Positions 25,501-27,229 of a stretch of 64,000 nucleotides of DNA are shown in pieces; within the stretch, counting starts at the first letter, position 1, and every line of letters starts with the position of its first letter. A program made the translations under genes and the position numbers. The notes under the pieces were generated by a model. That model was given only the letters and a program-made list of their open reading frames with translations, ran no database searches and was not told where the DNA came from. Source of the stretch: Apostichopus japonicus (taxonomy: Eukaryota; Echinodermata; Holothuroidea; Aspidochirotida; Stichopodidae); NCBI RefSeq assembly GCF_037975245.1, contig NC_092581.1:19428303-19492302 (forward strand), given 5' to 3'.

Positions 25501-26488
25501 AGTGGATCTTCCGGTCAGCCAGGTCAGAGGAAACTACGGCCAGGCAAATGTTGCTGCTGACCTGCAAACACCGACTAGACAGGAAATGCATCCTCAAAGG
25601 TGAATGAAGCAATGTTCCCACTGTTGCTAAGTCTTCCTGACAATCTTCCCCCTCCTCCCCCACCCCCCCTCTCCCCACCAGTTCCATTTAGCTTGCTCCT
25701 TCAAATCTAGTTAACAGGAATAATCATTAAAGGAGTAACACACAGGAAGTCTCAACAAGCAAAAAAAAAAATCATCATTTCAATGTCAGATGTCAGCATA
25801 CTTCAAGTCAGTATTGTGTTTGAGTTAGTTATATTGTACAACAGCCCAATGTAGTCTTAGGTCAGCCAGTTGTGCAAATTTTACTCAGATCAATTGATCA
25901 TACATATGTTACTATGTATACATTCAACCTTTTTTTACTTAAAAAAAGAAGTTCTTTATGTTTCTTCTTTTTGGAAGACTTTATAAGATATTTTAAATCT
26001 ATTTGTACTTTTCTTTTCTTGCTCTCTCTCTCTCAAATTTCAGCATATCTTCCTGTGAACATATCGCCCCCATTAAAGAGCAGGAATTTTCCTCTCTCTC
26101 ATCCAAGATGAAACAGAATCTCTCAATTGAGAGGGTGAATGGTTGGATTAAAATCATGGACAATTACCTAGCTGAGAAACCAAGTAAGTAAGACTATCAT
26201 TCTAAGTGCTGCTTCTTATCTATACACAAGATGTACTCGATGTGAACAATGCATCCATTAGGGAATACATTAGGGAATACAGGAGCAACAAAATGCTTGA
26301 GTTAGGTGACATTGACTCATTTTTTCAGGTAGGATAACTATACCAAGAAAAAAATTTTTTGACACAGTGCAAGGATTTCACCAGATCATGGGAATGACAT
26401 GAAATACTTTAAAGGGACTTTTAAGTGACACAAAACTGCTAGATATGGTAAAATTGCCTCAGTCTCAGCTACTGAAAGCCAATTTTAG

Positions 26489-26520
<32 letters not shown>

Positions 26521-27229
26521 GTTAATCAATAAAGAATAACACACCAGAAAAATTCCACTTCACGACCGGTTTCGTCCTTTTGGGACTCATCAGGCGAAGG
26601 CAGGAATCGAACCCCGGATCTTCGTGTCACGAACCGAAGTCCGTACCACTCAACCACAGTGATTCTACTGGTGTGTTAAAGCGTATAAATTGGCTTTGAA
26701 TAACTGTCATTAAGGGCGTATTACCCAAGTGTTATGATTGTAGCGTATAAATTGCCTAAAGAGTGGTTATTCTGAGTAAAATTGTCAGATTCAAAGCGCC
26801 AGGGGTGCACTCTGTACAATCATAACACTTGGGTAATTTTTCCATCGTGACATACATTGAGCAAGGAAGCTAGTCTTTGCTGAATTACTAACAATGCTTT
26901 ACTTTTTGGGAGCTGGTTACATATGCAATATATAGCAGTCAACTAGTAATTTGATTGATAAACCAGCATTTCCAGATTGGGGTTAAGTTGCATTGCAGAC
27001 AGACACTCGTCAGATAAAATATTTGTAGGTTGACGTTTTCCGTTGATTTACGGTCTCTCTTTTTGTTGTTTCAGTGGGAGAGAAGATGCTTTGTTCAGAG
27101 GATCTAGAGTCTCTTCAGGGATACCCTTGGCTACGAGCATTGCTGATGCTGATGGTCAATTTCCAAAGGATGGAGAGAAGAGCAGATGGAGATGATGTCA
27201 TCTTTATTCCATCTTCTATGAACTTGTAG
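16559..27229 (+). CDS. SKA3: Spindle and kinetochore-associated protein 3
   Basis: Coding exons: 16559-16732, 19589-19754, 20732-20828, 21084-21248, 21752-21810, 22850-23010, 23667-23909, 24305-24411, 25468-25599, 26044-26183, 27075-27229. All introns are GT-AG and phases join; 1,599 nt give 532 aa (human SKA3 has about 412). The N-terminal 113 residues match the SKA3 coiled coil that assembles with SKA1 and SKA2: LFSRLRRLANKVENES, then MQYDVHRLKNDASKELTKQ, ending SSLKEYLIQYGYQP. The middle is Ser/Pro-rich and disordered, with KTPKMEDFG (like human KMDDF) and many TP sites that could be CDK1 targets for binding NDC80. The last two exons (about residues 442-528) look like the SKA1 winged-helix microtubule-binding domain, which human SKA3 lacks. 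The start ATG is followed directly by another ATG. Identity is secure; the C-terminal reading is inference. Confidence 0.9.
17167..17953. mobile_element. hAT-like non-autonomous DNA transposon, 787 bp
   Basis: It lies in SKA3 intron 1. Terminal inverted repeats CATGGGCGTCAGCAGGT and ACCTGTTGACGCCCATG are bounded by an exact 8-bp duplication CATATTTG (17,159-17,166 and 17,954-17,961). Subterminal runs AGTGGGGGGGAC and GTCCCCCCC add to the symmetry. An 8-bp duplication fits hAT-type insertion. Open frames inside are short and overlap on both strands, so I do not call a transposase. Confidence 0.75.
18418..18937 (+). mobile_element. Candidate solo LTR
   Basis: About 520 bp in SKA3 intron 1, flanked by the direct repeat TTACT (18,413-18,417 and 18,938-18,942). 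It starts TGTTGTG and ends TTTAACG, close to the TGTT...AACA termini of LTRs with a final base change. Inside are CCAAT boxes (ACCAATCA twice), GCTATAAG and a late AATAAA-like signal (near 18,877). No internal retrotransposon part adjoins it, so a solo LTR is the simplest reading. Boundaries are tentative. Confidence 0.4.
22353..22720 (+). mobile_element. TTAA-flanked MITE, copy B
   Basis: In SKA3 intron 5. The left end is TTAAGGCATTGAAGACTCG and the right end is CGAGTCTTCACACCCTTTATT, so the right target site has decayed. The interior matches the copies at 13,295-13,650 (inverted) and 27,693-28,023 (direct). No coding capacity. Confidence 0.75.
26498..26520. repeat. TA microsatellite
   Basis: A run of TA dinucleotides at the 3' end (in minus-strand sense) of the SINE in SKA3 intron 10. 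It may derive from the SINE tail or have been the insertion target. Confidence 0.8.
26521..26680 (-). mobile_element. tRNA-derived SINE carrying a hammerhead ribozyme
   Basis: Minus-strand element in SKA3 intron 10, about 150 bp. From 5' to 3' it has a Pol III A box TGGTTGAGTGG (26,656-26,646, full match to the consensus), a B box GGTTCGATTCC (26,613-26,603, full match) 32 nt further on, then a hammerhead ribozyme overlapping the B box, then an AT-rich tail. The words CTGGTGTGTTA (26,667-26,677) and TAACACACCAG (26,537-26,547) are exact inverted repeats and would close the RNA into one domain. The design resembles the Sm-alpha elements of schistosomes (known family, tRNA-like promoter plus hammerhead). 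Exact ends are uncertain. Confidence 0.8.
26551..26608 (-). ncRNA. Hammerhead ribozyme, type I, complete core
   Basis: Read on the minus strand: outer stem I GATTCC (26,608-26,603), internal loop TGC, inner stem I CTTCGC (26,599-26,594), core CTGATGA (26,593-26,587), stem II GTCC with loop CAAAA and GGAC (26,586-26,574), GAA (26,573-26,571), a minimal palindromic stem III ACCGGT (26,570-26,565), C17 (26,564), then GTGAAG (26,563-26,558), which pairs with the inner stem I, a single T, and GGAATT (26,556-26,551), which pairs with GATTCC. Every invariant core position is present. Predicted self-cleavage falls between 26,564 and 26,563. The 3-bp loopless stem III suggests the RNA cleaves best as a dimer, as known for such short-stem hammerheads. 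It lies antisense to SKA3. Confidence 0.88.
26720..26837. repeat. Perfect 23-bp inverted repeat (hairpin)
   Basis: The segment at 26,720-26,742 (ATTACCCAAGTGTTATGATTGTA, split here as ATTACCCAAGTG and TTATGATTGTA) is an exact reverse complement of 26,815-26,837, with a 72-bp loop. It lies just beside the hammerhead SINE; GCGTATAAATTG occurs on both sides (26,681 and 26,743). It may be a very short MITE or a deletion derivative. No mismatch means it is young or kept. Confidence 0.8.

What the first reader, a model, noticed from the sequence alone, without database searches (positions are those of the whole stretch)
26521..26680. SINE with a complete hammerhead ribozyme inside SKA3 intron 10
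On the minus strand, perfect Pol III A and B boxes with tRNA spacing are followed by a hammerhead with every invariant core base, a two-part stem I (CTTCGC/GTGAAG, then GATTCC/GGAATT across an internal loop), a 4-bp stem II and a palindromic 3-bp stem III. The 5' strand of stem I overlaps the B box, so promoter and ribozyme constrain each other. The RNA ends can also pair (CTGGTGTGTTA with TAACACACCAG). The closest known design is the schistosome Sm-alpha type; a deuterostome version with this layout may be undescribed.
Basis: partly seen in the sequence, partly recalled or inferred. Interest (0 to 1): 0.88.

Follow-up and report, generated by a model that had tools for sequence, protein, structure and literature searches.

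The report
Hammerhead retrozyme with tRNA-like promoter
This is one copy of a genome-wide 341-base mobile repeat that carries a probable self-cutting RNA and a tRNA-like promoter, and its insertion scars suggest that it is copied by Penelope-like retrotransposons of the same genome.

Summary
The motifs are real: Rfam type I hammerhead at 26558-26599 minus (38.8 bits, cut-off 34), A box 26646-26656 and B box 26603-26613, 43 nt start to start. The interpretation needs correction. The 150-bp "SINE" is part of a 341-nt unit seen as a tandem array elsewhere in the genome. Of 79 copies, 72 include sequence upstream of the A box, and 12 exceed one unit by 14 nt or more, so the RNA template was circular or multimeric, not a Pol III-started SINE transcript. 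60 of 79 end at u50-54 or u78-90, 59 have (TA)n within 25 nt downstream, and 26 have a head-to-head antisense partner. Penelope-like elements (RT + GIY-YIG) of the same genome end at (TA)n 45-50 or 81-83 nt past a hammerhead-like motif in 14 of 15 copies; the repeat's modes are 43 and 81. Best reading: an echinoderm retrozyme of the Sm-alpha/metazoan kind, probably mobilised by Penelope-like elements. Against: no compensatory changes in the ribozyme stems, a plain tRNA SINE also sits at (TA)n, and tail sequences do not align significantly. Expression and cleavage are untested.

The parts
26514..26742 (-). Sense part of the retrozyme copy, unit positions u163 to u341 then u1 to u52
   Evidence: BLAST to the 341-nt unit of L017, 96%
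26752..26852 (+). 5'-inverted segment of the same unit (u99-u200), head-to-head with the sense part
   Evidence: BLAST 90% on the opposite strand; inverted repeat I1
26491..26520 (.). Imperfect (TA)n stretch at the 3' junction
   Evidence: sequence; (TA)4+ within 25 nt downstream in 59 of 79 copies
26646..26656 (-). A box TGGTTGAGTGG
   Evidence: regex on window copy
26603..26613 (-). B box GGTTCGATTCC; its last 6 nt are the 5' strand of outer stem I
26558..26599 (-). Type I hammerhead ribozyme motif; predicted cleavage between 26564 and 26563
   Evidence: RF00163 38.8 bits
26551..26556 (-). 3' strand of outer stem I (pairs with 26603-26608)
26548..26552 (-). T5 run, possible Pol III terminator
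   Evidence: sequence; a TTTTT run follows the hammerhead in 59 of 72 aligned copies
26668..26678 (-). Internal inverted repeat arm TAACACACCAG
   Evidence: I10
26537..26547 (-). Internal inverted repeat arm CTGGTGTGTTA
   Evidence: I10

Best explanation
[quoted passage not shown] Multimeric RNA is made (from tandem copies, by read-through or Pol III; inferred), the hammerhead, probably as a dimer, cuts it into units, and a host ligase closes them into circles (inferred from published retrozymes). The circle or multimer is reverse transcribed from one of two internal start points, about 52 or 89 nt past the ribozyme cut, into (TA)n DNA. Often both target strands are extended, which gives head-to-head copies (insertion scars shown; mechanism inferred). 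The likeliest enzyme is a Penelope-like element of the same genome, whose own copies show the same target and nearly the same two offsets from a hammerhead-like motif. The window copy is an ordinary, 5'-inverted insertion.
For: RF00163 above cut-off. 341-bp tandem array in L017; other pattern matches in pairs 338 and 341 bp apart. 72 of 79 copies include sequence upstream of the A box; 17 of 79 span more than 341 unit positions, 12 of them by 14 nt or more. 3' ends at u50-54 (44 of 79) and u78-90 (16 of 79); (TA)4+ within 25 nt downstream in 59 of 79, upstream in 27 of the 53 copies without antisense partner, background 12 of 2559 window 25-mers. 26 of 79 head-to-head; 15 of those 26 partners end at u52 or u83-89. 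PLE reading frames with RVT_1 and GIY-YIG, 4 of 5 scanned. (TA)5+ within 1.2 kb of the PLE 3' end in 19 of 24. PLE-A: 14 of 15 at 45-50 or 81-83 nt past GAAACGTC (GAAACGTT in one); retrozyme: 38 of 66 at 40-53, 16 of 66 at 76-83. A purified lizard PLE starts RT inside the RNA at two sites that bound the 30-40 bp tail, extends both strands and prefers AT-rich DNA; its commonest RT start (111-118 nt into the ORF) lies 85-92 nt past its hammerhead cut at +26, by my subtraction (PMC11167929 main text).
Against: No compensatory change in stems I-III and a covariation score no higher than in shuffles. Sequence similarity of the 84-nt post-cut segments of retrozyme and PLE-A is not significant (p 0.12 global, 0.20 local). 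A plain tRNA SINE without hammerhead also sits at (TA)n (17 of 23 distinct places, 7 of 8 in L143-L148), so the target alone does not point to PLEs. PLE-B has its junction at 124 nt (3 of 3); L088 and L092 carry CGAAACGTC but no (TA)5+ within 1.2 kb. The PLE-A motif lacks an intact CUGANGA half (read). The lizard PLE starts RT at sites not homologous to the cut DNA, whereas u52 lies in a TATATAT stretch, so simple microhomology could place that junction. 12 of 66 retrozyme distances lie outside both ranges. No RNA evidence. The T5 run could end Pol III transcripts before the RT start region.
Confidence: 0.68

Rival explanations
1. A classical tRNA-derived SINE: Pol III starts at its own boxes, and the RNA is copied by a LINE; the hammerhead is a passenger.
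For: A and B boxes are mostly intact: 20 of 22 and 21 of 22 similarity-sampled copies; A box 37 of 50 in pattern-sampled copies, where the B box was required by the sampling. A TTTTT run follows in 59 of 72.
Against: Only 1 of 79 copies starts in u237-250; 72 of 79 reach further upstream and 12 exceed one unit by 14 nt or more. A Pol III RNA ending at T5 would lack u16-u89, where the 3' junctions lie (inference).
Confidence: 0.1
2. A retrozyme, but mobilised by a non-PLE retrotransposon that targets (TA)n, the same one that moves the plain tRNA SINE.
For: The plain SINE lies at (TA)n in 17 of 23 distinct places, without a hammerhead of its own; most of these places were seen only because they lie beside retrozymes or PLEs, but 7 of 8 places in L143-L148, found by the SINE itself, agree.
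Against: Two-offset 3' ends and head-to-head copies match PLE biochemistry (PMC11167929) and the 3' ends of PLE-A. Whether the SINE shows them was not tested.
Confidence: 0.17
3. A decaying satellite or fossil family with no present activity; motifs survive only by recent common origin.
For: The hammerhead regex is broken in 12 of 72 aligned copies; no covariation.
Against: L017 matches its own tripled unit over 777 bp at 100%, and the 39 best other copies are 95-98% like the window.
Confidence: 0.05

Closest known systems
Sm-alpha / Sj-alpha of schistosomes
   Same: SINE-like, tRNA-derived (2,368 tRNA-Gln-TTG-like predictions, 2,342 of them classed as SINE; PMC2770079), boxes A and B plus type I hammerhead (PMC2576457), 335 bp (PMC8490949); passages only
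   Different: Different phylum; sequence not compared here. Whether Sm-alpha ends at (TA)n or shares PLE offsets was not examined. The founding paper (PMC108972) is not held.
Metazoan non-LTR retrozymes (PMC7229834)
   Same: Type I hammerhead, 170-400 nt unit, tandem copies, GC below 50%, PLEs in the same genome
   Different: That paper has 0 occurrences of SINE, Pol III, B box, echinoderm or sea urchin and leaves the mobilising enzyme open, with PLEs as strong candidate.
Penelope-like elements (PLE)
   Same: Hammerhead motif, two internal RT start sites that bound a 30-40 bp tail, AT-rich target, both strands extended (PMC11167929)
   Different: No PLE domain was looked for inside the 341-nt repeat, which is too short for a PLE protein; it would be a parasite of PLEs. 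In the lizard PLE the RT start is not homologous to the target; u52 here lies in TATATAT.
tRNA-derived SINE
   Same: A and B boxes at tRNA spacing
   Different: No Pol III-defined 5' end.

Membership tests
Type I hammerhead ribozyme (RF00163) | Rfam gathering score | tested here: met
   38.8 vs 34 bits
Type I hammerhead ribozyme (RF00163) | self-cleavage | not testable with these tools
   needs in vitro assay
Type I hammerhead ribozyme (RF00163) | stems kept by compensatory change | tested here: inconclusive
   0 of 18 hammerhead pairs change on both sides; 67 distinct, closely related copies
Metazoan non-LTR retrozyme | 170-400 nt unit with type I hammerhead, in tandem copies | tested here: met
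   341 nt, array in L017; 12 of 79 copies exceed a unit by 14 nt or more
Metazoan non-LTR retrozyme | GC below 50% | tested here: met
   unit GC 0.419
Metazoan non-LTR retrozyme | target site duplications, when present, longer than 4 bp | not tested
   (TA)n at the junctions hides duplications
Metazoan non-LTR retrozyme | circular RNA in tissue | not testable with these tools
   no RNA data
tRNA-derived SINE | A and B boxes | tested here: met
tRNA-derived SINE | 5' end at the Pol III start | tested here: not met
   1 of 79 at u237-250
Sm-alpha | homologous sequence | not tested
   design compared through papers only
PLE-mobilised element | two 3' junctions 30-40 nt apart, near those of a resident PLE | tested here: met
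   retrozyme modes 43 and 81 nt, PLE-A 50 and 81 nt from cut motif to (TA)n; PLE-B differs, 124 nt
PLE-mobilised element | shared 3' sequence with the PLE | tested here: inconclusive
   alignment p 0.12-0.20; two short motifs at like offsets, null 0.022, chosen after looking

The most novel reading that the evidence does not exclude
Retrozymes are the SINEs of Penelope-like elements: a tRNA-like promoter joined to the hammerhead-plus-tail module by which PLE protein recognises RNA and starts reverse transcription internally. The ribozyme is then kept as part of the enzyme's docking and start site as well as for making circles, and retrozyme copies are the readout of circular templates used by PLE enzymes.
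Probability: 0.42. Interest if true: 0.78.

Novelty: new member of a known kind. Interest (0 to 1): 0.56.

Why it matters
Which enzyme moves animal retrozymes was left open in the 2020 paper I read (PMC7229834 names PLEs only as a strong candidate). Here one genome holds both partners, with the same target and nearly the same pair of start offsets, so the question can be tested with one purified protein and one RNA. It also appears to extend the promoter-plus-hammerhead design from flatworms to an echinoderm (species inferred).

Tried and rejected
MITE reading (11-bp inverted repeats as transposon ends, TA as duplication): rejected, because copies continue beyond both arms. Helitron-like non-autonomous element (microsatellite plus tandem core): considered and dropped once the unit proved circularly permuted with (TA)n junctions; not tested separately. 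Linear ribozyme-cleaved monomer as main template: the 24-mer starting at the cut occurs 247 times and 202 keep GGTC before it; of 17 fetched from listed places that do not, 1 (L130) starts exactly at the cut and 2 (L125, L127) within about 3 nt, so this looks like a minor route. Covariation: uninformative. tRNA identity: ARAGORN (bacterial mode) found no tRNA in the window, and RF00005 did not appear in the E<=10 search of 26400-26800. SKA3: the nearby + strand exon matches Pfam SKA1 weakly (23.5 bits, below cut-off) and the genome's clear SKA1 is on C13; gene name left open. If that exon is read from the + strand, the host transcript carries the antisense of the ribozyme. Relatives in other echinoderms were not searched; the collections on hand are of prokaryotes, phages, plasmids and viruses. 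Papers not held: PMC108972, PMC4209133 and a 2017 paper on minimal hammerheads whose DOI I recalled.

Sampling: 81 loci = 20 of the matches, the window, and 60 regions holding 62 of the 67 listed pattern matches on C1-C6 (2 of the other 5 were already held as L007 and L019; 3 lie in one C1 cluster and were left). 79 of 81 had a copy crossing the cut. Alignment A1 (72 rows) left out 12 loci with incomplete segments, one junction copy of L008 and one further array unit of L017. Of 17 copies spanning more than 341 positions, 5 do so by only 6-8 nt, which (TA)n matches could explain. The 24 PLE 3' flanks come from 24 of the 37 GIY-YIG matches.

Full report
Observation. Rfam RF00163 matches 26558-26599 at 38.8 bits (cut-off 34; E 2.8e-6 for the whole window), the only match at threshold in 64 kb. 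A and B boxes are 43 nt apart, start to start, and are the only such pair in the window. The B box lends its last 6 nt to the outer part of stem I. No shuffle of 200 folds as well as the RNA.

The genomic unit. Locus L017 (C14) shows an array with a period of 341 bp and a 777-bp stretch that fits its own tripled unit at 100%. Counted from the ribozyme cut (u1), the unit runs through a T run, a TATATAT stretch at u46-52, a tail to about u89, an upstream stretch, the inner repeat arm at u227, A box u249, B box u292 and hammerhead core u312. In the window the sense part is u163 to u52 and is preceded by u99-u200 in inverted order. A strict B box plus hammerhead pattern occurs 304 times in the genome, reversed control 0. 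RF00163 itself gave 70 matches from 74 scored of 66,307 candidates, 50 over the cut-off. All 20 further loci looked at, 18 of them regions from that list, belong to the same unit.

How copies are made. Of 79 copies that cross the ribozyme cut (81 loci sampled), 44 end at u50-54, 16 at u78-90 and 19 elsewhere; 59 have (TA)4+ within 25 nt downstream. Of the 53 without an antisense partner, 27 have (TA)4+ within 25 nt upstream as well, which makes (TA)n a target and not only a tail in those copies; 12 of 2559 window 25-mers do. The 5' ends scatter over the unit. 72 of 79 reach upstream of u237, 1 starts at u237-250 and 6 start further in. 17 of 79 span more than 341 positions, 12 of them by 14 nt or more. 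A Pol III-started SINE RNA cannot supply the upstream part, so the template was circular or multimeric. It seems rarely to have been the cleaved linear unit. 26 of 79 copies have an antisense partner head to head; 15 of the 26 partners end at u52 or u83-89, 11 elsewhere.

The likely partner. GIY-YIG hits in the genome (37 matches from 150 scored of 626 candidates) led to open frames with RVT_1 and GIY-YIG, the make-up of Penelope-like elements: 4 of the 5 frames scanned have both. Of 24 PLE 3' flanks, 19 hold (TA)5+ within 1.2 kb and 5 do not. In the PLE-A group (15 measured) the distance from GAAACGTC/T to (TA)n is 45-50 nt in 9, 81-83 in 5 and 340 in 1. The PLE-B group (3 measured) has 124 nt. 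Two further flanks (L088, L092) have CGAAACGTC without (TA)5+. The retrozyme, measured the same way, has 38 of 66 at 40-53 (mode 43), 16 of 66 at 76-83 (mode 81) and 12 elsewhere. A purified lizard PLE starts reverse transcription inside its RNA at two sites that bound the optional 30-40 bp tail, and extends both target strands. Its commonest start is 111-118 nt into the ORF and its hammerhead cut is at +26, hence 85-92 nt apart (my subtraction). Hammerhead mutants still insert (PMC11167929, whole main text read). The three sets of offsets agree closely enough to make PLE mobilisation the best explanation, though sequence similarity of the tails is not significant, and two short shared motifs at like offsets are a post hoc finding. 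The lizard PLE starts at RNA sites not homologous to the cut DNA; u52 lies in TATATAT, so microhomology with the target may help here.

Against the reading. The hammerhead stems show no compensatory change; over all 37 pairs given, 5 change on both sides against 5.2 in shuffles. The copies are related and alike, so this neither supports nor refutes the ribozyme. A plain tRNA SINE (RF00005 52.5 bits at L144 1174-1245, overlapping the SINE match at 1126-1201) also abuts (TA)n: 17 of 23 distinct places, 7 of 8 in the loci found by the SINE itself. So the target is not peculiar to hammerhead elements. PLE-A lacks an intact 5' core of the ribozyme as read; PLE-B has CTGAAGA and CGAAAGCTC but another offset. 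The T5 run after stem I might end Pol III transcripts before u16, so Pol III transcription alone may not yield the template. The boxes may have another role or the run may terminate poorly.

Known kinds. Sm-alpha of schistosomes has A and B boxes and a type I hammerhead (PMC2576457, passages), is tRNA-derived (PMC2770079, passages) and 335 bp (PMC8490949, passages). Animal retrozymes are 170-400 nt tandem repeats with type I hammerheads made as linear and circular RNA, with PLEs as strong candidate movers (PMC7229834: abstract, passages, sections 13, 14, 17). In what I read that paper names cnidarians, molluscs, rotifers, platyhelminths, annelids, crustaceans, insects and amphibians; it has no hit for echinoderm or sea urchin. 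Passages of PMC7761336, PMC3088659 and PMC6155905 were also searched without a hit for echinoderm. Searches for hammerhead ribozyme, SINE, tRNA and sea cucumber, any three (116 papers, 20 listed), hammerhead ribozyme with echinoderm (4), with sea urchin (4), hammerhead with sea cucumber (35, 10 listed) and retrozyme with polymerase III (1) showed in their listings none whose title or abstract start reports this element. The library holds open-licence papers only. Species: the assembly size fits Apostichopus japonicus (PMC10344927 passages); this is inference.

Noticed in passing
L001, L003, L012, L143-L148; also other fetched loci: A plain tRNA-derived SINE (828 first-look candidates, 40 scored) also has its 3' end at (TA)n, 17 of 23 distinct places.
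   Followed up: partly
L081 2433-5162, 5429-6262 and 6126-8183; L082 1488-3992; L083 1873-3300: PLE reading frames; in L081 two frames lie on the minus strand (one partial) and one on the plus strand, with outward 3' ends at (TA)n, like the head-to-head retrozymes.
   Followed up: partly
L106 (C15:15237700-15243700): Three retrozyme fragments (u252 to u89) 3.2 and 1.6 kb apart, perhaps carried in a larger repeat.
   Followed up: no
L069 886-1121: Two copies, 157 bp apart, that hold only u310-u52 of the unit, perhaps a secondary satellite made from a retrozyme end.
   Followed up: no
genome annotation (PMC10344927 table): Published tRNA counts for this species differ widely (1,127 and 4,963); tRNA-like repeats such as these may inflate them.
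   Followed up: no
window 25997-26188 +: Exon-like frame with a weak SKA1 domain match (23.5 bits, below cut-off); the clear SKA1 gene is on C13.
   Followed up: partly
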